DNA of 64,000 nt from Phototrophicus methaneseepsis (GTDB lineage Bacteria; Chloroflexota; Anaerolineae; Aggregatilineales; Phototrophicaceae), in the NCBI RefSeq assembly GCF_015500095.1, contig NZ_CP062983.1, positions 2,356,001 to 2,420,000 on the forward strand, in the 5' to 3' direction. The position numbers were made by a program, and so were the translations under genes. The notes beneath the pieces were generated by a model. The model made no database searches, was not told the origin of the DNA, and saw nothing but the letters and a program-made list of their open reading frames with translations. Positions within the stretch are counted from its first letter, which is position 1, and each line of letters starts with the position of its first letter. This document shows positions 347-12,404 of the stretch, one piece after another.

Positions 347-375
347 TTGACAACATCTGCCCCTTACGTGACAAT
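347..375 (+). promoter_or_regulatory. Sigma-70-type promoter of the LacI regulator gene
   Basis: A perfect -35 box TTGACA (347-352) is followed after 17 bp by GACAAT (370-375, 4 of 6 matches to TATAAT). The predicted transcription start falls inside the palindromic operator at 382-395, the usual layout for an autorepressed gene. Confidence 0.55.
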
Positions 376-381
376 ATGAGA

Positions 382-395
382 TGAGAGCGCTCTCA
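382..395. promoter_or_regulatory. LacI-family operator, perfect 14-bp palindrome tgagagcgctctca
   Basis: The 14-bp sequence is fully palindromic with a central CG, as LacI-family proteins require. It resembles the TGGGAGCGCTCCCA operator known for CebR-type cello-oligosaccharide regulators of actinobacteria. It begins 6 bp downstream of the -10 box and 81 bp before the regulator's start codon, so the neighbouring regulator is its most likely ligand. Confidence 0.7.
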
Positions 396-1625: not shown

Positions 1626-3428
1626 ATGGAACAAAGTACAGCTTATAAAGATGCGACTCGGACGATAGAGGAGCGCATTGATAGCCTGCTGGCGCAGATG
1701 ACGCTGGACGAGAAAATCGGCCAGATGACGCAACCAGAGAAAAATAGCATCACCCCGGAAGACGTCACAAAATACTTCATCGGGTCTGTCCTGAGCGGTG
1801 GCGGTGGTAACCCAACGCCAAATAATGGTGAAAGCTGGGCCCAGATGGTGAAGGGCTTTCAAAAAGCGGCCCTTGAAACGCGCTTAGGCATTCCGCTGCT
1901 TTATGGTGTGGATGCCGTTCATGGGCATAACAATGTCGTCGGCGCGACGATCTTCCCGCACAATATTGGTATGGGTGCAACACGTGACGCGGATCTTGTC
2001 GAGCGGTGTGCCCAGGTGACAGCACAGGAATTACTTGCTACAGGTGTGCACTGGGATTTCGCGCCAGCGGTGAGCATCCCGCATGATTTTAGATGGGGGC
2101 GTAGCTACGAAGGTTACGCGGATAACCCGGCGGTTGTATCTGAATTAGGGGCAGCGTTCGTCAGAGGCTTGCAAGCGCCTAATGGTGGCGAAGCCCATAT
2201 TCTGCCATCCGTAAAGCATTACGTGGCCGATGGCGGCACCACCTGGGGCAGCAAGAAGAGCTACGAGTGGATTGAATTTGTGTGGGAAAGCGAAACAGAC
2301 AAGTGGAGCATTGATCAGGGTGATGCCCAGATTGATGAAGAGACGCTGCGCACAATCTTCCTGCCGCCGTATAAAGCTGCTATCGAGCAGGGGGCGCTCA
2401 ATGTGATGGCATCGTATAGCATGTGGAATGGCGTCAAGCTGCACGGCCATAAATACCTGCTGACGGATGTGCTGAAGGATGAACTCGGCTTTGAAGGCTT
2501 TATCGTCACCGATTGGATGGCGATTGATCAACTTTCAGAGAACTACTACGATGCTGTTGTTCACAGCATTAACGCCGGGATCGACATGAATATGGTGCCT
2601 TTCGACTATAAGCGCTTCATCACCGTGATGAAGGAAGCCGTTGAAAAGGGCGACATCAGCATGGCACGCGTTGACGATGCTGTCCGCCGTATCTTGCGCG
2701 CTAAGTTTTGGCAGGGCCTCTTTGAAAAACCCATCACGGACGATCATTGGTTGGATGACTTCGGCGGTGAGGCACACCGAGAAGTCGCCCGCGAAGCCGT
2801 GCGTAAATCGCTCGTGCTGCTCAAGAATGAAAATCATGCGCTCCCGCTGACGGCTGAAGCTGGCCCTGTCCTGGTCGCTGGCGAAGGTGCCGATGATATT
2901 GGCCTGGCTTGTGGTGGCTGGACTATCGAATGGATGGGGAACAAGGGGGCGATCACCCCTGGTTCTACCTTGCTTGAAGGTTTAAAAGCCCAGCTTGGCG
3001 ATGAAAACGTCAAATACAGCGCAGAAGGCGCCTTCAGCACCACTGAAAAAGCCCCTGTGGCGGTCGTTGTGGTGGGCGAAGACCCTTATGCGGAAGGTGA
3101 AGGCGATACATCAAACCTGGCGTTGCGTGCGGAACATGTCGCCCTGGTAGAACGTGTACGCGCTGTTTGTGATAAGCTGGTGCTCGTCATTTATAGTGGT
3201 CGTCCTGTTATCCTGAGTGATGTGCTGGCGGAATGCGATGCCATCGTGGCAGCGTGGCTGCCCGGTACAGAAGCCAACGCTATCGCGGATGTGCTCGTTG
3301 GCGAAGCGCCATTTGAGGGCAAGCTCGGCCATAATTGGCCCCGCAGCATGGATCAGGTGCCGCTTTCTGCCCTGAAAGCCAGCGATCAAGGCCCGCTGTA
3401 TCCGTATGGGCATGGTCTGTCTTTGTAA
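1626..3428 (+). CDS. Glycoside hydrolase family 3 beta-glucosidase, cytosolic
   Basis: 600 residues with the two-domain GH3 layout: a TIM-barrel domain to about residue 360 and an alpha/beta sandwich to the end. The nucleophile motif FIVTDW places the catalytic Asp at 296. The sandwich domain ends with the family pattern around LGHNWPRSMDQVPLSAL and PLYPYGHGLSL. There is no signal peptide, so it should act inside the cell, hydrolysing beta-linked glucosides such as cellobiose brought in by transport. It closely resembles the GH3 half of the next gene (for example DERIDSLLAQMTLDEKIGQMT against DERVDDLLGRMTLEEKIGQMT), so the two probably arose by duplication. aaagga 11 bp upstream could serve as ribosome site. 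Exact substrate is not determined by the sequence. Confidence 0.92.
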   Translation: MEQSTAYKDATRTIEERIDSLLAQMTLDEKIGQMTQPEKNSITPEDVTKYFIGSVLSGGGGNPTPNNGESWAQMVKGFQKAALETRLGIPLLYGVDAVHGHNNVVGATIFPHNIGMGATRDADLVERCAQVTAQELLATGVHWDFAPAVSIPHDFRWGRSYEGYADNPAVVSELGAAFVRGLQAPNGGEAHILPSVKHYVADGGTTWGSKKSYEWIEFVWESETDKWSIDQGDAQIDEETLRTIFLPPYKAAIEQGALNVMASYSMWNGVKLHGHKYLLTDVLKDELGFEGFIVTDWMAIDQLSENYYDAVVHSINAGIDMNMVPFDYKRFITVMKEAVEKGDISMARVDDAVRRILRAKFWQGLFEKPITDDHWLDDFGGEAHREVAREAVRKSLVLLKNENHALPLTAEAGPVLVAGEGADDIGLACGGWTIEWMGNKGAITPGSTLLEGLKAQLGDENVKYSAEGAFSTTEKAPVAVVVVGEDPYAEGEGDTSNLALRAEHVALVERVRAVCDKLVLVIYSGRPVILSDVLAECDAIVAAWLPGTEANAIADVLVGEAPFEGKLGHNWPRSMDQVPLSALKASDQGPLYPYGHGLSL

Positions 3429-3440
3429 TTCGTTTATTGA

Positions 3441-3468
3441 AGAAGGGGTCTTTGTGCCCCTTCTTTTT
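3441..3468 (+). terminator. Rho-independent terminator between the two GH3 genes
   Basis: agaagggg (3441-3448) pairs with ccccttct (3457-3464) over an 8-nt loop, followed by a T tract. It separates the cytosolic GH3 from the secreted fusion, which therefore probably has its own promoter. Confidence 0.75.
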
Positions 3469-3546
3469 AGCTTGGCATTATTTCAATTTTTGTTTCACAC
3501 GCTATGAATTCGTCCTAAAAGTACGTTTATTGCAAGAGGTTCACAC

Positions 3547-6500
3547 ATGACATCTTTTTTCAAACGTCGATTTTTGCTCGGTTTATTGTTGAGCCTGCTG
3601 GTGATTGCTGGCACACAGGCACAATCCGATCTTGAGGATGCCCCCTATAAAGACCCTTCACTGCCAATTGATGAGCGCGTTGACGATTTGCTAGGCCGCA
3701 TGACGCTGGAAGAGAAAATCGGCCAGATGACCCTGGTCGAAGTCAACAGCCTCCAGCCAGAAATTGTCCGCGATCACTTTATCGGGGCGATTCTCAGCGG
3801 TGGCGGCGGTTATCCGACCCCCAACACAGTAGAAAATTGGGCCTTACGGACGGATACGCTGCAACAGGCGGCCATGGAGACGCGGCTGCAAATCCCCATG
3901 ATGTATGGCGTTGATGCTATCCATGGGCATAACAACGTCCGGGGCGCTGTGATCTATCCACATAACATTGGCCTGGGCGCGACAGGGGATGCGGAATTGG
4001 TGCGCCTGATCGGGCAGGCTACCGCCTGTGACATGCTGGCGACAGGCATTCAGTGGGATTATGCGCCCGTGCTGGCTGTTCCGCAGGACATCCGTTGGGG
4101 CCGGACTTATGAAGCCTTCGGCCAGGATACGGAACTCGTCACAGAACTTGGCGTGGCTTATATTGAAGGCCTGCAGGGCGATGACCTCGCCAGCCCGACG
4201 ACCGTCGCGGCGACGCCCAAGCACTTTGTCGCTGATGGCGCGACGATGATTGGTACCTCGCGTACAAATGGCTATTTGCTGGACCAGGGTAACGCCAGCC
4301 TGACAGAAGAAGTGCTCCGTGAGGTGCATCTTGCGCCTTATGAAGCGGCTATCGCCCAGGGCGCGCAGATTATTATGGCTTCCTACTCAAGCTGGAACAA
4401 TAAAAAGCTGCATGGTCAGGCGTATTTGCTGACGGACGTCCTGAAAGGCGAAATGGGCTTTGAAGGCTTTATCGTCAGCGATTGGGCGGGTGTTGATCAG
4501 GTCAGCAGCGATTATTATGACGCTGTTGTGACGAGCATCAACGCGGGTATTGATATGAATATGGTACCCAGCAACTTTGGGCGTTTTATCACGGTGATGG
4601 AACAGGCTGTGGAAGATGACGACATCATCATAGAGCGCATTGACGATGCAGTGCGCCGCATCCTGCGCGTCAAGTTTATGCTGGGCTTGTTCGAGAATCC
4701 CTATACCAACCCGGATTTAGCCGCGTCGTTTGGTTCCGATGCTGCGCGTGAATTGGCGCGGGAGGCTGTGGCGCGGTCGGCTGTCTTGCTCAAAAATGAT
4801 GCTGATGTGCTCCCGCTCTCCACGGATTTAGACAGGGTATTCATTGCTGGTGATCAGGCTAACAGTGTCGGCATTCAATCCGGTGGCTGGACGTTGGAGT
4901 GGCAGGGGACAAGTGCTGATTTACCCGGTACGACGATTGCAGAAGGGATCCAGGCGGCCCTGGGGGATCGTACACAGGTTTTTGTCGACCGGGACGGTGT
5001 TTTCGAAGATGCGACAGACGAAGCGGGTCACCCATTGCGGGCGAATGTCGGGGTCGTCGTCATTGGCGAGCGCCCCTATGCGGAAGGCGTCGGCGATGTG
5101 TTGGACCTGGCATTGTCTGAAGATGATATGCAGCTCATCGCAGACGTGCGCGAACGCAGCGATAAACTCATTATCGTACTCGTGAGTGGTCGTCCACTGC
5201 TGATTAATCAGGCACTGGATTATGCTGATGCCTTTATCGCGGCATGGCTCCCCGGCTCTGAAGGCGCAGGCATCGCCGATGTGATCTTCGGTGAACGGCC
5301 CTTTAGCGGTGTGCTGCCCATGGCATGGCCTCGCGACATGGCACAGGTACCTCTCAGCGCGCTTGAATCCAGCGAGGAGCCGCCGCTGTTCCCTTATGGT
5401 TATGGCCTGACCACAGCGGGTGAACCGGCTGCTTTACCACAAATCACTTGTGGTAGCGCATCATCTCAAATACAAACAGAAAGCACAGAAGTAGAGAGTA
5501 CTGACGTAGAAAACTCTGAAACAGAGCGTACTGAAACACCGAGTGAGGAGGTCGCTATGGAGACGGAAGTGCCAGCAACAGAAACACCTGGCCCAGATTT
5601 ATCAGGCCTTGCCGTGAGCGTTAACCAGATTGGTTACTATCCAGATGCGCCTAAATTCGGCATGGTCGCCAACAGCGGCCTGGAAACGGCGACCTGGGCT
5701 TTGCTGGATGTTGAAAGTGGTGCTGTCGTGTCTGAAGGCGTGGCAGGGCCAGCGACTCATGATGCTGCGAGCGGTGATGAATTGCTCGTCGTAGATTTTA
5801 GTCCGTTTTCGACACCCGGAACGTATCAACTAAATGTGCAGGGGGCGGTTAGCGCCCCCTTTCGCATTGGGGAAGATGTCTATCGTGATCTGAGCGTGGA
5901 TGCTCTGCGTTATTTTTACCTCAGCCGCAGTGGTATTGAACTGGACCCAACCTATGCTGGCGATTATGCGCGTCAGGCTGGGCACATGACCGATGATGAT
6001 GTCATTTGCTATCAGGGGACAGATGCAGCGGGTGCTTCCTGGCCGGGTTGCGATTACGTGCTGAATGCGCGCGGCGGTTGGTACGATGCTGGCGATTATG
6101 GTAAGTATGTCGTCAATGGTGGTATTAGTGCCTGGACGCTGCTCAATCTGTACGAACGTGTGCCTTCAGCGTACCCGGATGGCAGCCTGAATATCCCTGA
6201 GAGTGGTAATGGCGTCTCCGATTTGCTGGATGAAGCGCGTTGGGAAGTCGATTTCTTGCTCTCGATGCAGGTGCCGGAAGGCCAGCCACAGGCGGGCATG
6301 GTGCATCACAAATTGCATGATCTGAGATGGGGCGACATCCCCGAAAAGCCACCCACAGAATACAATAATGATAACGATCATCAATCTTCTTACAGTGGGC
6401 GCTACGTCTATCCGCCTTCAACAACGGCGACTTATAACATGGCGGCTGTCGCTGCACAGTGCGCGCGCATCTGGCAGGGCATCGACGACGATTATGCTGA

Positions 6501-7344
6501 ACGCTGCCTGAATGCGGCTGTTCGTGCCTTCGATGCTGCTGATGAGAACCCGATTGCGTTGGCGGGGAATACACCCGGCGAAGGCGGCGGTAATTACGAT
6601 GATGTCAGGCCGCAGGATGAAAAGTATTGGGCGGCTGCGGAGCTTTTTGTTACCACGGGAGATACACATTATCTGGAAGCCATGCAAAGCACACCCTATC
6701 TCGCCCAGTTTGGCGCTCTATACAATGACGGAGCTATGACATGGGGAGATACGGCGGCATTGGGGACCCTTTCCATATTGCTGCATGCTGCTTCGCTGGA
6801 TGCATTGGATGCCGAGACGCTCACGACCATGCAGGAACAGCTTATTTCTGTAGCGGATGACTATCTGGCGCGTATCGCGAGCGAAGGGTATCGTCTGCCA
6901 ATGCGCAATTACGTCTGGGGGTCTAACAGCGTCGCATTGAATAATGCCATCATCCTGGCTTATGCATATGATCAAACGGGCGATTTGCGCTATCTGGGCG
7001 GGGTAACAGAGACGATGGATTATATCCTGGGGCGCAATACCTTCGCCTTTAGCTTTGTGACGGGCTACGGTACAGAGCGTGCCCAGCACCCGCACCATCG
7101 CTTCTGGGCCAATGAGCCAGGGCGTGGCTTCCCGGCACCACCGCCGGGCGTGGTAGTTGGTGGCCCCAATGCAGACCCTAGCGACCCGACAGCGCTTGAA
7201 AGCGCGGATCTTGAGCATGGGCCTGCGCGTCGTTATGTGGATTTGCGCGGCAGTTGGTCTACCAATGAGGTGACAATTAACTGGAATGCGCCGCTTGCAT
7301 GGGTGGCCGGCTACTTAAACGCGCTCCATACAAGCGACGCCTGA
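3547..7344 (+). CDS. Secreted GH3-GH9 fusion: beta-glucosidase joined to cellulase
   Basis: 1265 residues. Residues 1-25 form a signal peptide (two Arg, a long Leu/Val core, cleavage near TQA-QS). A complete GH3 module follows (about 35-630) with nucleophile Asp312 in IVSDW and the closing PPLFPYGYGLTT. A Thr/Glu/Ser-rich linker spans about 640-685. Then comes the Ig-like CelD_N domain (from VSVNQIGYYPDAPK, about 690-775) and a GH9 catalytic domain with D847 and D850 in WYDAGDYGKY, H1183-H1184-R1185, and catalytic acid Glu1241 within a segment that fits the GH9 signature 2 pattern exactly. One chain could therefore cut cellulose and hydrolyse the released cello-oligosaccharides outside the cell. 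No anchoring or carbohydrate-binding module is evident at the C-terminus. Both modules keep their catalytic residues, so neither looks decayed. Confidence 0.93.
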   Translation: MTSFFKRRFLLGLLLSLLVIAGTQAQSDLEDAPYKDPSLPIDERVDDLLGRMTLEEKIGQMTLVEVNSLQPEIVRDHFIGAILSGGGGYPTPNTVENWALRTDTLQQAAMETRLQIPMMYGVDAIHGHNNVRGAVIYPHNIGLGATGDAELVRLIGQATACDMLATGIQWDYAPVLAVPQDIRWGRTYEAFGQDTELVTELGVAYIEGLQGDDLASPTTVAATPKHFVADGATMIGTSRTNGYLLDQGNASLTEEVLREVHLAPYEAAIAQGAQIIMASYSSWNNKKLHGQAYLLTDVLKGEMGFEGFIVSDWAGVDQVSSDYYDAVVTSINAGIDMNMVPSNFGRFITVMEQAVEDDDIIIERIDDAVRRILRVKFMLGLFENPYTNPDLAASFGSDAARELAREAVARSAVLLKNDADVLPLSTDLDRVFIAGDQANSVGIQSGGWTLEWQGTSADLPGTTIAEGIQAALGDRTQVFVDRDGVFEDATDEAGHPLRANVGVVVIGERPYAEGVGDVLDLALSEDDMQLIADVRERSDKLIIVLVSGRPLLINQALDYADAFIAAWLPGSEGAGIADVIFGERPFSGVLPMAWPRDMAQVPLSALESSEEPPLFPYGYGLTTAGEPAALPQITCGSASSQIQTESTEVESTDVENSETERTETPSEEVAMETEVPATETPGPDLSGLAVSVNQIGYYPDAPKFGMVANSGLETATWALLDVESGAVVSEGVAGPATHDAASGDELLVVDFSPFSTPGTYQLNVQGAVSAPFRIGEDVYRDLSVDALRYFYLSRSGIELDPTYAGDYARQAGHMTDDDVICYQGTDAAGASWPGCDYVLNARGGWYDAGDYGKYVVNGGISAWTLLNLYERVPSAYPDGSLNIPESGNGVSDLLDEARWEVDFLLSMQVPEGQPQAGMVHHKLHDLRWGDIPEKPPTEYNNDNDHQSSYSGRYVYPPSTTATYNMAAVAAQCARIWQGIDDDYAERCLNAAVRAFDAADENPIALAGNTPGEGGGNYDDVRPQDEKYWAAAELFVTTGDTHYLEAMQSTPYLAQFGALYNDGAMTWGDTAALGTLSILLHAASLDALDAETLTTMQEQLISVADDYLARIASEGYRLPMRNYVWGSNSVALNNAIILAYAYDQTGDLRYLGGVTETMDYILGRNTFAFSFVTGYGTERAQHPHHRFWANEPGRGFPAPPPGVVVGGPNADPSDPTALESADLEHGPARRYVDLRGSWSTNEVTINWNAPLAWVAGYLNALHTSDA

Positions 7345-7350
7345 TGCTGA

Positions 7351-8034
7351 TTATGATGTTTCTTCGCTGAGGCCCATCGCTGCGTTGAAGGTATTGATCG
7401 TCGCGCGCGACAGCGGCACAAGGGGGTTGCCCTGGGTGCTGCTGAACAACTCAATGTTCACCTCAATGAAGGCATTCGCAACTTGGAAGATAGCGATGGA
7501 GCCATATAAGCCGGACCCAAACAGGTTTGGCTGTGGGAAGTTATCTTCCGTGCGGCCTGTATCCAGGACGCTGCGAATGCCTTTGATGAATTCATAGTGC
7601 TCCTTAGCGGCTTCTGCATCGTCGAAGAAGGCGAAGGATAGGTTCATCTGGCCGCCTGTTTGCTCGTTGTAATAAACTTTGACGCCAGAGCCACCTGCCT
7701 GTACGTTGGTTAATGGGCTGATGCCATCTTCCCCGCGAGAATAATCTCGCCGCCATTCGATGGCACCTGCGGGCAAGCGATTTGGCAAAGCTGCGATCAG
7801 GGTATCTATAGCCGCTTCAATCTCTGTATTTCCCGTCTCTGCACTGGTTTCTGCTTCCGCATCTGCATCTGGGTTTGGTGTTGGCGTCAGCGAGGGGGTC
7901 GGAATCGGCGTGTTTGTAACGGTGGGCGTTATATCCAAGTCATCAGGCGCACAAGCAGCGATTAGCAGCATGACGATCAAGAGAAATAGGCCATAACGCC
8001 TTTTGAGGTGGGTGGCATGATGAATGTGCGACAT
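7351..8034 (-). CDS. Lipoprotein of unknown function, last gene of the sugar ABC operon
   Basis: 227 residues. A lipoprotein signal peptide ends in LLIAAC (lipobox Cys about residue 28), followed by a Thr/Pro and Asp/Ala/Glu-rich spacer to about residue 70. A globular domain of about 150 residues follows that I do not recognise; its Gly-rich strands and pattern AKEHYEFIKGI suggest a small alpha/beta fold. Its ATG overlaps the stop of the ATPase gene by one base (TAATG), so the two are probably translationally coupled and the lipoprotein may assist the transporter at the outer face of the membrane. That role is inferred from position only. It ends 6 bp from the convergent GH3-GH9 gene. Confidence 0.8.
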   Translation of the reverse strand: MSHIHHATHLKRRYGLFLLIVMLLIAACAPDDLDITPTVTNTPIPTPSLTPTPNPDADAEAETSAETGNTEIEAAIDTLIAALPNRLPAGAIEWRRDYSRGEDGISPLTNVQAGGSGVKVYYNEQTGGQMNLSFAFFDDAEAAKEHYEFIKGIRSVLDTGRTEDNFPQPNLFGSGLYGSIAIFQVANAFIEVNIELFSSTQGNPLVPLSRATINTFNAAMGLSEETS

Positions 8035-8864
8035 TATGGCATATCCTCTGTTGACATGTCCTCTACTTCCGGGTCGAACAGTCGCAGCCGTTCCGGGATC
8101 GTATCGGAGATAATCATCTGTGCGACCTCTGATTCACTGACCTCTTCTTTGCGGAAGTCGCCCAATTTGCGCCCCCGGCTGATGATCGTAAAGCGGTCTG
8201 CTACGGCGTGCACCTGGCTGATGTTGTGCGTGATGAAGATCACGCTCATGCCGCGTTCTTTAGCCGCCAGGGTATAATCCAGTACTTTACGCGTTTCGCC
8301 AACGGAAAGGGCGGATGTCGGCTCATCGAGGATGAGCAGCTTCTTGCCGAAGTAAACAGCCCGCCCGATGGCGATAGACTGCCGCTCCCCGCCAGACATT
8401 GTGCCGACTTCTTCGTTTGGGTCGCGGATGTGAATGCCGACATCGGCCAGGGCTTCAATGGTGATTTCGGCCATGTGGTTCTGATCGAGGAATTGAAAGG
8501 GGCCAATATGATAGGTTGGCTCCTGCCCCAGCCAGAAGTTGCGTGCAATACTCATCAAAGGGACCAGCGCCAAATCCTGATAAACTGTTTCAATCCCCAG
8601 GTCACGGGCATCATGGGGCGATTCAATGCTGACAGGCGCTCCCTCAAAATAAATCTGGCCTTTGGTGGGCGTATGAAAGCCCGTCAGTACCTTAATCAGC
8701 GTCGATTTCCCTGCGCCATTATCCCCTAATAAGCCGACGATCTCTTGCTTATCTACATGGAAGTTGATGCCACGCAGTGCCTGCACACTACCGAAGTATT
8801 TGTGAATATCGCGCATGTCGACAAGTGGCGTATCTGTTCGGTCTGTTTCGTTCGGGCTGCTCAT
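8034..8864 (-). CDS. Sugar ABC transporter ATPase, single-domain CUT2 type
   Basis: 276 residues with one nucleotide-binding domain: Walker A GDNGAGKST (47-55), Q-loop around residue 96, signature MSGGE (156-160), Walker B LLILDE (176-181) and the H-loop in IFITHN. CUT2 (ribose/xylose-type) ATPases usually carry two such domains in about 500 residues; this one has a single domain like the FrcA type. It would power the permease encoded just upstream (8897-10927). The stop overlaps the start of the lipoprotein gene by one base. Substrate is not readable from the ATPase; the locus suggests a pentose, hexose or oligosaccharide from plant matter. Confidence 0.92.
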   Translation of the reverse strand: MSSPNETDRTDTPLVDMRDIHKYFGSVQALRGINFHVDKQEIVGLLGDNGAGKSTLIKVLTGFHTPTKGQIYFEGAPVSIESPHDARDLGIETVYQDLALVPLMSIARNFWLGQEPTYHIGPFQFLDQNHMAEITIEALADVGIHIRDPNEEVGTMSGGERQSIAIGRAVYFGKKLLILDEPTSALSVGETRKVLDYTLAAKERGMSVIFITHNISQVHAVADRFTIISRGRKLGDFRKEEVSESEVAQMIISDTIPERLRLFDPEVEDMSTEDMP

Positions 8865-8896
8865 AGGTGGTCCTTTCTGTTCCCTCTCCGATTCTC

Positions 8897-10927
8897 TTAT
8901 TTTTGTCGACCACGCACGGTGGTATTGAGCACAACGGCCACAATGATGATGACACCAACTGTGCCCTGGAACAGGCGCGAATCAATGCCGACAAGCACCA
9001 GCCCCGTCTGCAACATGCCAAAGATGAGTGCACCCAGGAACGACCCGAAAACACTGCCATAACCGCCGCTGAGCAACGCGCCGCCAATGACCGTCATTGC
9101 GATGACTTCCAGCTCCCACCCCTGGCCTTTCAGTGGGTCCACGCCGGGGTTACGGGCTGTCTCATAGATGGCGGCAATACCGGTCAGCATGGCTGTCAGG
9201 ACGAAGTTCTGCACTTTAATGCGCGCGACGTTGATACCCTGGGCGCGGGCGGCGGCTTCGTTACCACCTACCGCAAAGACGGAATTGCCGTAGGGTGTGC
9301 GCATCAGGATGACATTGAACACGAAGACGAAGATCAGCCACCAGATAATTGCCATGCGGAAGTTCGCCGCGCTTTCCGTCACGATGTGCAGCCCTAAAAA
9401 GTGTACATTGAGGTCCCAGCGCCCATTGATGAGGTCAAACCAGCCCGCCTGGACGAATTGCCCCTCTGATAGGTAATAGATGATGATTTGCAGCAACCAG
9501 AAGGCGAATATCGCTGTTGCTGCTGTTGCCAGGAAGGCGAATATCGCACGATAAATTGCCGTTGTCGTGCCGAAGTACCCGTTATCCTGGCGCATTTGCC
9601 ATACTTGCGCGGCGCGGCGCCATAAATTAGGCAAAGATCGCCATGCCAGGAACAGCGTAACTGCCATCGCAATGAGTGCCAGCAAAATCAGCACCCAGGG
9701 GGAAATATCGACGGTTGGGAATTCACTGAAGTAATCGCGGTAGCGCAAAATACGCCCGCCTGCGATGACGACCAGTGTAATCGCGCGGTAAGCAAGCAGC
9801 GTCCCTAACGTCACGATGAAAGAGGGAATGCCTGTTGTGATGAGGATGAGGCCGTTAATGAGCCCCAGAACAAAGGCCACGAACATTGCCAGCGCCGCCG
9901 CCGGGATGACATCCAGCGGACCCGTATTCATGCCTGGGATGCCTTCCGTCATGAAGGTCATGAAGGTCATGGCGACCACACCCAGTATGGAGCCGACAGA
10001 GAGGTCAAATTCGCCGGAGATCATCAAAATGGTGATGCCAATGGCGATGATGCCCCGGCTAGAGACATTCGTCAGGATGGATGCGATAGACGATTGTGTG
10101 AAAAAAAGATCAGTCGTCATCGTGAAGCCGAAGAAGATGGCGATAAAGCCGATGATGGCCCCTGCACTGGGTGATTTGGCAAGTTGCAGGCTGATCGTCT
10201 TCGTCGGGGACATAGAGACAGCTCGTCGCAGGTCATCAGAGGCTTCGACATTGGGGCGGGTCAGTAGATAGATGATGAGCCCAACTGTAAAGAGGGCGAT
10301 ACCTGGCAGCAAGCGCCATAATTCTGGGTGGCGAATATTCGCGACATCTAGCGGGAATAGTTCCACCCATTGGATAATCTGCACCAGCATCCAACCTACG
10401 CCCAGGCCGAGCAGGACGAGCCCGCTCAGTTGCAGGGTGCGCTTGTAATGATCAAAACGGCGGTTGCGGGGCAGCAAGAGCAGCACACAGCCAACAATCG
10501 CTACTAAGACGCCCAGATTCATCTGCGCCGTGGTTTCTGGCGGTGGATCGCCCCCGTTGACTTCTGCGACGAGCAGGAAGAACTTCACCACAGCCGGGAT
10601 CAAGACACTGGCAATCAACATAAAGCCGATGATCGCTGTGAGAAGGCTCATCCAGCGCGTCCAGCTTATTGCTGCGGCTTGCTGCTGCCACAGCCCCCAG
10701 GCTGTACGCAGGCACGCGATGGCATAAATCACGCTGACGATGATTGCGGCCCATTCAATCAGGTTTTTATCACTGCGGAGGATGTTGGCGCGTTCCCCCA
10801 GGGGGAGCCACCCTGTAATGATTTGTTCTGCAACGAGGATGCCAACGGCTGCTAATGCCAGCATCACAAAGGCGAAGAGCTGCGCGGTGCGCGTGCTATC
10901 TCGTTTTCCATCTAAAAACGCTTGCAT
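8897..10927 (-). CDS. Sugar ABC transporter permease (CUT2 family), unusually long
   Basis: 676 residues, twice the usual 320-350 for this family. The permease core begins near residue 255 with TTDLFFTQSSIASIL and shows the family hallmarks ISGEFDLSVGS, GLINGLLI-like, TLGTLLAYR, YAVGGNEAAAR-like (here FAVGGNEAAARAQGI) and MTVIGGALLSGGYGS. The first 230 residues add about six hydrophobic segments absent from ordinary members. A second extra stretch of about 120 residues (roughly 395-515) with two or three hydrophobic segments interrupts the core. It works with the ATPase at 8034-8864 and the binding protein at 11111-12097 to import a sugar. A 32-bp gap separates it from the ATPase gene. Confidence 0.9.
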   Translation of the reverse strand: MQAFLDGKRDSTRTAQLFAFVMLALAAVGILVAEQIITGWLPLGERANILRSDKNLIEWAAIIVSVIYAIACLRTAWGLWQQQAAAISWTRWMSLLTAIIGFMLIASVLIPAVVKFFLLVAEVNGGDPPPETTAQMNLGVLVAIVGCVLLLLPRNRRFDHYKRTLQLSGLVLLGLGVGWMLVQIIQWVELFPLDVANIRHPELWRLLPGIALFTVGLIIYLLTRPNVEASDDLRRAVSMSPTKTISLQLAKSPSAGAIIGFIAIFFGFTMTTDLFFTQSSIASILTNVSSRGIIAIGITILMISGEFDLSVGSILGVVAMTFMTFMTEGIPGMNTGPLDVIPAAALAMFVAFVLGLINGLILITTGIPSFIVTLGTLLAYRAITLVVIAGGRILRYRDYFSEFPTVDISPWVLILLALIAMAVTLFLAWRSLPNLWRRAAQVWQMRQDNGYFGTTTAIYRAIFAFLATAATAIFAFWLLQIIIYYLSEGQFVQAGWFDLINGRWDLNVHFLGLHIVTESAANFRMAIIWWLIFVFVFNVILMRTPYGNSVFAVGGNEAAARAQGINVARIKVQNFVLTAMLTGIAAIYETARNPGVDPLKGQGWELEVIAMTVIGGALLSGGYGSVFGSFLGALIFGMLQTGLVLVGIDSRLFQGTVGVIIIVAVVLNTTVRGRQK

Positions 10928-11014
10928 AATAGTCTATTCCGATTCGTCGTGTCGTTCACCATGGTGGTATGCGATCTCGTTCCCTTAAAGCGTGATCGGT
11001 ACGAGAATAGAATT

Positions 11015-11044
11015 GAGAATCAGCCAGTAGAGAATCAGCCAGTA
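11015..11044. repeat. Perfect 15-bp tandem duplication
   Basis: gagaatcagccagta occurs twice back to back (11015-11029 and 11030-11044) in the gap between the binding-protein and permease genes. It looks like a recent slippage duplication. Confidence 0.85.
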
Positions 11045-11059
11045 GCAAAAGGTAGACAA

Positions 11060-11095
11060 AAGAAAGAGGATGCATGGTTGTTCGTCCATGCATCC
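11060..11095 (-). terminator. Hairpin between binding-protein and permease genes
   Basis: ggatgcatgg (11068-11077) pairs perfectly with ccatgcatcc (11086-11095). On the minus strand it is followed by a T-rich stretch. Such a hairpin inside an ABC operon commonly lets the binding protein be made in excess over the membrane parts, by partial termination or by protecting the upstream mRNA from decay. Confidence 0.65.
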
Positions 11096-11110
11096 CCTGA
11101 TAGTGTTTTT

Positions 11111-12097
11111 TTAGCGATAACCGGCTGCGGTGAGTTCGACAATGGCATCAACGTTAGATTGGTCGATGACACCAGGACCCGTCAGGATGTCGCCACCTGG
11201 GGCCAGAGCAAACTGGCTGTTCAGGTAGAGCCACATGATCGTTTCAAACCCTTGTAGATAGGGCTGCTGATCAATCGCCTGAACGAGGTAACCTTCCTGG
11301 ATCATCTCGTAGATTTCAGCACTGGTATCATGCGTGGTGGCGAAGACATCACCCGGCATACGGCCTGATTCCTGGAAGTAAAGGTTCAGTGCGCTGGCTG
11401 GGTTGGGGCCGAGCATGAAGGCTGCATTTGTATCCTGGTTGGCGGTGAAGTAATCGCTCAGCACGCCCGCGGATTCTGTGACATCGTTGCTGATGGTCAG
11501 GCCATCAAGGGGGATGCCTGCTTCTTCAAAGACACTGCGCACGCCAGCACAACGGGCTTCCAGGCCACTATGGCCGACTTCCTGGATGGGGCAAACACCA
11601 CGTGTAATTTCTGTACCTGCTTCTGCAGCAGCATCTAGCACAGCCTGGGCGTTGGAGCGCCCGCCGAGGAATTCATTCGCACCGACGTAGAAAAGGGTGG
11701 GGAGTGCATCGGGCGTGCCTGCGTTGGGGTCCGCCGTGTTAAAGACGACGACAGGAATGCCCGCATCTGCGGCACGGTTAACCGCATCACGGATCACTTC
11801 AGGGTTAGGAACTGTGGTGCCGATGCCGTCGTTATCACGGGCAAGGGCATCGTCCCAGTAACCTGCCATATCGTCAACGCTGTCGACCGGATCTGCCAGC
11901 CATTCACAATCGGCTTCTAACAGGGCGCAAGCATCATCCATACCTTTGATGACGACGATCCAGAATGGATTGCCGACACCGCCATGGCTGACCATGCTAA
12001 AAACGAGCTGATCTTGTGCGCCAACACCGCCGATACCAGCGATGATGACACCTGTAACGAGTAATAAAATCGGGATGACTCGGAATAACGTCTTCAT
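11111..12097 (-). CDS. Sugar ABC transporter substrate-binding protein (periplasmic-binding-protein-like)
   Basis: 328 residues. The ATG at 12097 is chosen because GGAGG lies 8 bp upstream and a signal peptide follows at once (MKTLFRVIPILLLVTG..., cleavage near GVGAQ); an earlier ATG at 12157 would bury it. The mature protein has the ribose-binding-protein fold: VSHGGVGNPFW near the start, RAADAGIPVVVFNTADP in the first lobe, then TTHDTSAEIYEMIQEGYLVQAIDQQPYLQGFETI in the second. It should capture a sugar outside the membrane and pass it to the permease. There is no lipobox, so it would be a soluble or loosely held protein. Two promoter candidates lie upstream at 12234-12295. Confidence 0.92.
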   Translation of the reverse strand: MKTLFRVIPILLLVTGVIIAGIGGVGAQDQLVFSMVSHGGVGNPFWIVVIKGMDDACALLEADCEWLADPVDSVDDMAGYWDDALARDNDGIGTTVPNPEVIRDAVNRAADAGIPVVVFNTADPNAGTPDALPTLFYVGANEFLGGRSNAQAVLDAAAEAGTEITRGVCPIQEVGHSGLEARCAGVRSVFEEAGIPLDGLTISNDVTESAGVLSDYFTANQDTNAAFMLGPNPASALNLYFQESGRMPGDVFATTHDTSAEIYEMIQEGYLVQAIDQQPYLQGFETIMWLYLNSQFALAPGGDILTGPGVIDQSNVDAIVELTAAGYR

Positions 12098-12404
12098 CTG
12101 GGAACCTCCAATAACCTTATAAAATGTCTCGAGCAAGGCGCTCGTTGAGACCAACAAAAGAAATATTCGGATGGTATGGTTGAGGGTTCTTCAAAGATGG
12201 CGTCGAAGCGTCACGCACGCGTTATATTTAAATTTAGTATGTCGCATGGATGACTGTGTCAAGCGGATATTACAACGCGTCTATAAACTTGTCAATAAAT
12301 CGACATTTGTCATATTGAGATATATAACGTGAATGGACCTAGAAAGGACCGCATTTTAGAGGCGCGGTCCTCTTTAACGAATTTCACTTTGGCGTATAGA
12401 TAGC
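12098..12404 (-). promoter_or_regulatory. Control region of the ABC operon with two candidate promoters
   Basis: On the minus strand there are two perfect -35 boxes. TTGACA at 12290-12295 is followed after 17 bp by TAATAT (12267-12272); TTGACA at 12257-12262 is followed after 17 bp by TACTAA (12234-12239). An ACGCGT palindrome lies in the spacer of the first (12275-12280) and another just past the second -10 box (12217-12222), 58 bp apart, fitting paired operators of a LacI-type repressor. A two-way hairpin (12345-12352 with 12364-12371) near the other end probably terminates the FAH gene at 12405. Confidence 0.5.

What the first reader, a model, noticed from the sequence alone, without database searches (positions are those of the whole stretch)
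3547..7344. One secreted chain holds a full GH3 glucosidase and a full GH9 cellulase
Both modules keep their catalytic residues (Asp312; D847/D850 and Glu1241) and are joined by a flexible Thr/Glu-rich linker. GH9 with carbohydrate-binding modules is common, but an N-terminal GH3 joined to a C-terminal GH9 is not an arrangement I know as standard. It would combine cellulose cutting with cellobiose removal, easing product inhibition.
Basis: partly seen in the sequence, partly recalled or inferred. Interest (0 to 1): 0.7.

Follow-up and report, generated by a model that had tools for sequence, protein, structure and literature searches.

The report
Two-headed secreted sugar-cutting enzyme GH3–GH9
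A deep-sea Chloroflexota bacterium makes one secreted protein that joins a glucose-releasing enzyme to a cellulose-cutting one, a rare pairing found otherwise in only four near relatives, and in its closest relatives the chain-cutting half is swapped for a different one or is missing.

Summary
Confirmed. Window 3547–7344 is one 1265-aa frame: signal peptide, complete GH3, disordered Glu/Thr linker, Ig-like CelD_N domain, complete GH9. All catalytic residues are intact: Asp312 and Glu513 (barley ExoI D285/E491); Asp847, Asp850 and Glu1241 (CbhA E795). The genome matches Phototrophicus methaneseepsis ZRK33 in size.

The architecture is rare but not unique. Of 154 genomes searched in the order, four others in the same family carry GH3–CBM9–CelD_N–GH9. 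It was not seen in the other samples, and no paper found describes it.

The fusion belongs to a β-glucan locus with its own LacI regulator. That gene's perfect operator TGAGAGCGCTCTCA occurs once in the 5.63-Mb genome, is repeated in relatives' loci, and differs from the CebR/CelR cellobiose box at two positions. In relatives the second secreted enzyme is GH3–CBM9–GH9, GH3–CBM9–GH16, GH3–CBM9, or a separate CBM9–GH16: a conserved glucosidase with an exchangeable endo-glucanase.

The GH9 resembles cellobiohydrolase CbhA but lacks its blocking loop, so it is probably an endoglucanase. Relief of product inhibition is plausible, untested. Verdict: a real, lineage-specific new variant of multi-catalytic glycoside hydrolases, of moderate interest.

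The parts
347..375 (+). best sigma-70-like promoter match upstream of the LacI gene (TTGACA-17-GACAAT)
   Evidence: highest score in the region, but the number of hits in the region is no more than the shuffle mean, so weak on its own
382..395 (.). perfect 14-bp palindrome TGAGAGCGCTCTCA, putative LacI-family operator just after the -10 element
   Evidence: only copy in the 5.63-Mb genome; same exact box twice in G001's locus L027 and twice in G031's locus L039
476..1522 (+). LacI-family regulator
   Evidence: ORF; Pfam LacI and Peripla_BP_3
1626..3428 (+). short GH3 exo-beta-glucosidase, no signal peptide evident (probably cytoplasmic)
   Evidence: same gene directly upstream of the secreted GH3 in G001, G008, G719 and G722
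3442..3469 (+). terminator-like hairpin GAAGGGG-loop-CCCCTTC followed by TTTTT between the two GH3 genes
   Evidence: read directly from the sequence; not listed by the scan; G001 has one at the same place (L027:8257-8278)
3547..7344 (+). GH3-linker-CelD_N-GH9 fusion protein, 1265 aa
3547..3624 (+). signal peptide, residues 1-26
   Evidence: read from sequence; relatives' N-termini are alike
3643..5421 (+). GH3 catalytic module (both GH3 domains), residues 33-625; nucleophile D312, acid/base E513
5422..5610 (+). Glu/Thr/Ser-rich disordered linker, residues 626-688; the CBM9-like module of relatives is missing here
5611..5847 (+). CelD_N Ig-like domain, residues 689-767
5881..7305 (+). GH9 catalytic module, residues 779-1253; D847, D850, E1241

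Best explanation
The gene encodes a secreted two-catalyst beta-glucanase of a small LacI-controlled beta-glucan utilisation locus. The C-terminal CelD_N-GH9 module cuts beta-1,4-glucan chains, most likely as an endoglucanase. The N-terminal GH3 module, of the barley ExoI type, then removes glucose from the freed ends and from cello-oligosaccharides, so glucose (which this strain uses) is made on one molecule outside the cell. A second GH3 gene just upstream, without a signal peptide, finishes imported oligosaccharides inside. The fusion is the second secreted enzyme of a locus conserved in the family, in which the GH3 head is kept and the endo-acting tail is exchanged: GH9 here and in four relatives, GH16 in the same-genus relative, none in another. 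Shown: modules, catalytic residues, locus, operator, distribution. Inferred: secretion, endo mode, substrate, induction by cello-oligosaccharides, any catalytic gain from the physical link.
For: Domains and residues intact. GH3 best PDB matches are 5m6g beta-glucosidase (584 bits) and barley ExoI (519 bits). GH9 best matches are CbhA 1ut9/1rq5 by sequence and fold (Z 46.7, rmsd 1.9 over 557 residues, 44% identity), but it lacks the GEDNGLW loop that blocks the CbhA site after -2 (alignment; loop from PMC6032398). GH3-CBM9-GH9 fusions in four same-family genomes, with the same short GH3 directly upstream in the two whose contigs reach that far. GH3-CBM9-GH16 in the same-genus genome G001 and GH3-GH16 in G030. 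Unique perfect operator repeated in relatives' loci, 12 of 14 bases identical to the CebR/CelR box TGGGAGCGCTCCCA (PMC5332605). The strain grows on glucose (PMC8941918); glycoside hydrolase genes as a group were upregulated in situ (PMC11005417).
Against: No biochemical data for this protein or a close relative. The strain's published growth tests do not mention cellulose or cellobiose. The chain has no recognised carbohydrate-binding module, unusual for an enzyme acting on crystalline cellulose, so soluble or mixed-linkage glucans are possible. A terminator-like hairpin lies before the fusion gene, so co-transcription with the operator-bearing promoter is uncertain, and no operator copy lies directly upstream of it.
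Confidence: 0.75

Rival explanations
1. Same anatomy, but the real substrate is a non-cellulosic beta-glucan (mixed-linkage beta-1,3-1,4-glucan, xyloglucan or an exopolysaccharide): GH9 cuts beta-1,4 stretches and the broad ExoI-type GH3 clears the rest.
For: ExoI-type GH3s are broad in linkage (literature knowledge; D285/E491 and the flanking Trp conserved); sister loci carry GH16, a beta-1,3/1,3-1,4-glucanase family; no CBM in the window protein; marine cold-seep origin.
Against: GH9 is much closer to CbhA (439 bits) than to xyloglucanase BoGH9A (279 bits); the operator resembles the cellobiose-responsive CebR box.
Confidence: 0.35
2. The link has a specific catalytic benefit: the GH3 removes cellobiose at the site of production, relieving GH9 product inhibition.
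For: Two complementary catalysts on one chain; an engineered exoglucanase-beta-glucosidase fusion in Clostridium thermocellum improved cellobiose conversion over added free enzyme (PMC5429504).
Against: Not tested here; a 60-residue disordered linker gives high local concentration but no channel; endo-GH9s are not all strongly inhibited by cellobiose (general knowledge); co-secretion could do the same.
Confidence: 0.35
3. The window fusion arose separately from the four GH3-CBM9-GH9 fusions, or its GH3 head was replaced by recombination.
For: GH9 modules form one 100/100 clade, but the window GH3 falls outside the GH3-CBM9-X clade (100/99); AU tests reject window GH3 with the fused set alone (p 0.0005) and with G001 added (p 0.0013); the CBM9 is absent; the clade's Cys before PLFPYGYGL is absent, although a tail Cys remains.
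Against: The window GH3 as sister to all six GH3-CBM9-X proteins is not rejected (p 0.071), which fits one old fusion with later loss of CBM9 here, swap to GH16 in G001 and loss of GH9 in G008; no mosaic pattern along the GH3.
Confidence: 0.45
4. The two halves are made as separate polypeptides through an internal start at Met671 in the linker.
For: AGGAGGT, a 7-base Shine-Dalgarno match, precedes in-frame ATG at 5557; the best of 361 internal ATGs in the window genes.
Against: The encoded PSEEVA gives a match of 7 or more in about 9% of random codon choices; the product would lack a signal peptide; no such site in the fused relatives' linkers.
Confidence: 0.04

Closest known systems
Clostridium thermocellum CbhA / CelK (Ig-GH9 cellobiohydrolases)
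   Same: CelD_N Ig domain plus GH9, 44% identity, same fold (Z 46.7, rmsd 1.9, 557 aligned), same catalytic residues
   Different: lacks the GEDNGLW exo-loop and the six-residue insert after GHI; far below the CelK equivalog cut-off (524.5 of 1700 bits); no CBMs, no dockerin; carries a GH3 head
Barley beta-glucan exohydrolase ExoI and bacterial GH3 5m6g
   Same: two-domain GH3, D312 = D285, E513 = E491, active-site tryptophans conserved
   Different: fused to GH9; ExoI is a stand-alone plant enzyme
GH3-CBM9-GH16 and GH3-GH16 proteins of the same order (G001, G030, G038)
   Same: secreted GH3 head plus C-terminal endo-glucanase; in G001 the same locus with the same operator and short GH3
   Different: endo module is GH16 instead of GH9; G001 has a CBM9-like module
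Natural multi-activity glycoside hydrolases (Caldicellulosiruptor GH9-CBM3-GH5 and similar; PMC4928363)
   Same: two glycoside hydrolases on one chain
   Different: those combine polymer-cutting families and are often CBM-rich; here an oligosaccharide-trimming GH3 is N-terminal. That survey mentions GH3 only in passing among associated domains, and its supplement was not readable here
Engineered CelS-BglA fusion in C. thermocellum (PMC5429504)
   Same: a cellulase and a beta-glucosidase covalently linked so cellobiose is removed at source
   Different: engineered, GH48 exoglucanase, cellulosomal
CebR/CelR regulon of actinomycetes (box TGGGAGCGCTCCCA)
   Same: LacI-family regulator, 14-bp palindrome, cellulase genes
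   Different: box differs at two symmetric positions; only one site in this genome; effector unknown

Membership tests
GH3 (ExoI-type, two-domain) | both GH3 domains complete | tested here: met
   PF00933 1-316/316 and PF01915 2-199/200
GH3 (ExoI-type, two-domain) | nucleophile Asp and acid/base Glu at the ExoI positions | tested here: met
   D312 = D285, E513 = E491
GH3 (ExoI-type, two-domain) | exo-glucosidase activity | not testable with these tools
   needs enzyme assay
GH9 with CelD_N Ig domain | GH9 domain complete, with two Asp and one Glu | tested here: met
   PF00759 1-443/444; D847, D850, E1241, Glu aligned to CbhA E795
GH9 with CelD_N Ig domain | N-terminal Ig-like domain | tested here: met
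   PF02927 68.8 bits; fold match covers model residues 56-632
CbhA/CelK cellobiohydrolase (exo-acting GH9) | GEDNGLW loop closing the cleft after the -2 subsite | tested here: not met
   gaps in the window sequence at this loop in the 1ut9 alignment; loop role from PMC6032398
CbhA/CelK cellobiohydrolase (exo-acting GH9) | NCBIfam equivalog score NF049990 | tested here: not met
   524.5 bits against cut-off 1700
Multi-activity (multi-catalytic) glycoside hydrolase | two or more complete GH catalytic domains in one ORF | tested here: met
CebR/CelR-type regulation | LacI-family regulator gene with a CebR-like palindrome at the locus | tested here: met
   12 of 14 bases as in the CebR box
CebR/CelR-type regulation | cellobiose is the effector | not testable with these tools
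   needs binding assay

The most novel reading that the evidence does not exclude
A family of Anaerolineae carries a natural plug-in enzyme: a conserved secreted GH3 exo-glucosidase head at one LacI-controlled locus whose endo-glucanase tail (GH9, GH16 or none, with or without CBM9) is exchanged between close relatives, retargeting the whole beta-glucan pathway by one domain swap, with GH3-GH9 joined more than once.
Probability: 0.4. Interest if true: 0.6.

Novelty: new variant of a known kind. Interest (0 to 1): 0.42.

Why it matters
Enzyme engineers fuse β-glucosidases to cellulases to remove cellobiose; here nature has done a version of this and kept it in five genomes of one family. Comparing the same slot with GH9, GH16 or no endo module gives a ready natural series for asking whether covalent coupling helps and how a bacterium changes its polysaccharide target by swapping one domain. 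The window genome matches that of a cultured isolate, P. methaneseepsis ZRK33, so the claim can be tested.

Tried and rejected
Internal start at Met671: striking at first (best of 361 internal ATGs), but about 9% by codon choice alone and absent in the fused relatives; rejected. Mosaic GH3: no block along the GH3 is consistently closer to one clade. Other long GH9 frames (G772, G186, G383, G220, G412, G767): checked, no GH3 found in them. Plasmid records: none covers 80% of the query. Literature: 'GH3-GH9' and 'GH9-GH3' give no paper, nor do six longer phrases; the single 'GH3-GH16' paper concerns loci, not one chain.

Full report
Observation. The window contains one uninterrupted reading frame at 3547–7344 (+), 1265 aa. 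Pfam places a complete GH3 pair of domains (53–375, 413–622), a CelD_N Ig-like domain (689–767) and a complete GH9 domain (779–1253), all far above the cut-offs. Alignment to barley ExoI shows D312 = D285 and adds the acid/base E513 = E491; alignment to CbhA shows E1241 = E795. The linker of about 60 residues is rich in Glu, Thr and Ser and has pLDDT under 50, while the Ig–GH9 part folds with high confidence (overall mean 83.7) onto CbhA (Z 46.7, rmsd 1.9 over 557 residues, 44% identity). The N-terminus reads as a Sec signal peptide (by eye).

Organism. This is the genome's only GH9. A later study reports glycoside hydrolase genes upregulated in situ, without naming this one in the passages found.

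How widespread. In 154 genomes of the order, 29 have a GH9 match. Five have GH3 and GH9 in one frame: the window and four others of the same family (G704, G719, G722, and G731, cut by a contig end). Those four are GH3–CBM9–CelD_N–GH9 of about 1485 aa where complete. G704 is taken to be the genome behind the public contig JAEUQX010000019.1, whose locus has the same length and gene coordinates. Among the 79 best GH9 loci of the 84,980-species collection that contig was the only fusion. None was seen in samples of 396 class genomes or 301 phylum genomes apart from the window, and no plasmid record covers 80% of the query. These are samples: absence elsewhere is not shown.

The locus. Upstream lie a LacI-family gene and a short GH3 without an evident signal peptide. 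The same short GH3 sits directly upstream of the secreted GH3 gene in G001 (same genus), G008, G719 and G722. The second enzyme varies: GH3–CBM9–GH16 in G001, GH3–CBM9 in G008, GH3–CBM9–GH9 in G719 and G722, and in G031 a separate CBM9–GH16 protein (the GH16 part is read from its sequence, the CBM9's kind of search). A perfect palindrome TGAGAGCGCTCTCA stands just after the best promoter match and before the LacI gene. It occurs once in the whole genome and twice in each of the G001 and G031 loci. It differs at two symmetric bases from the CebR/CelR box TGGGAGCGCTCCCA, which controls cellulases and cello-oligosaccharide uptake in actinomycetes with cellobiose as best effector (PMC5332605). A terminator-like hairpin lies between the two GH3 genes here (read by eye) and in G001, so the fusion gene may be transcribed partly on its own.

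Mode of action. GH9 is nearest to CbhA, described as exo-acting because a GEDNGLW loop blocks the cleft after subsite -2 (PMC6032398). The window protein lacks that stretch, so an endo mode is more likely. The GH3 is of the ExoI type. The best-supported picture is therefore an endo-glucanase and an exo-glucosidase on one secreted chain that turns a β-1,4-containing glucan into glucose outside the cell. Relief of product inhibition is a reasonable expectation, supported only by an engineered parallel (PMC5429504).

History. The GH9 modules of the five fusions plus an unfused CBM9–GH9 (G020) form one clade (100/100), with the window basal to the rest at 90/90. The window GH3 lies outside the GH3–CBM9–X clade (100/99). 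Tests reject grouping it with the fused GH3s alone (p 0.0005) or with G001 added (p 0.0013), but not as sister to all six (p 0.071). So either one old fusion lost CBM9 here, changed to GH16 in G001 and lost GH9 in G008, or the GH3 was joined or replaced separately. A Cys just before the PLFPYGYGL motif in that clade is missing here while a tail Cys remains, which hints at replacement. No mosaic pattern was found. This is unresolved.

Novelty. Multi-catalytic glycoside hydrolases are well known (PMC4928363), and GH3–GH16 chains occur in relatives. No paper in the library holds 'GH3-GH9' or 'GH9-GH3', nor any of six longer phrases. CAZy and UniProt could not be searched. I rate it a new variant of a known kind, lineage-specific, of moderate interest; the exchangeable-tail locus is the more interesting part.

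Noticed in passing
window 382-395; L027:1345-1358 and 2551-2564; L039:622-635 and 1858-1871: Perfect palindrome TGAGAGCGCTCTCA, single copy in the genome, conserved at the homologous beta-glucan loci; likely the operator of the local LacI regulator, close to the actinomycete CebR/CelR box.
   Followed up: yes
L039:7433-9553 (G031) and L027:8297-11716 (G001): The same locus carries a separate CBM9-GH16 protein in G031 and a GH3-CBM9-GH16 fusion in G001: endo-glucanase module exchange at a fixed locus.
   Followed up: partly
window 5541-5559: AGGAGGT followed by in-frame ATG (Met671) in the linker: possible internal start, but explained by codon choice with about 9% chance.
   Followed up: yes
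window 3442-3469: Terminator-like hairpin with T-run between the short GH3 gene and the fusion gene; a similar one at the same place in G001.
   Followed up: partly
L029:6933-9506 (G020): CBM9-CelD_N-GH9 without GH3, nested in the clade of GH3-fused GH9s; its N-terminal linker (PVVALPS...) matches the linker after GH3 in the fused relatives, suggesting loss of the GH3 head.
   Followed up: partly
L206, L207, L208, L214, L215 (G772): One order-level relative has several large GH9 proteins (1230-1550 aa frames) with long unassigned flanks.
   Followed up: no
window 8034-12157 (-): ABC transporter genes (ATPase, 676-aa permease of the BPD_transp_2 family, substrate-binding protein of the Peripla_BP_4 family) convergent with the fusion gene, unlike the MalEFG-type transporter inside the G001 and G031 loci.
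   Followed up: no
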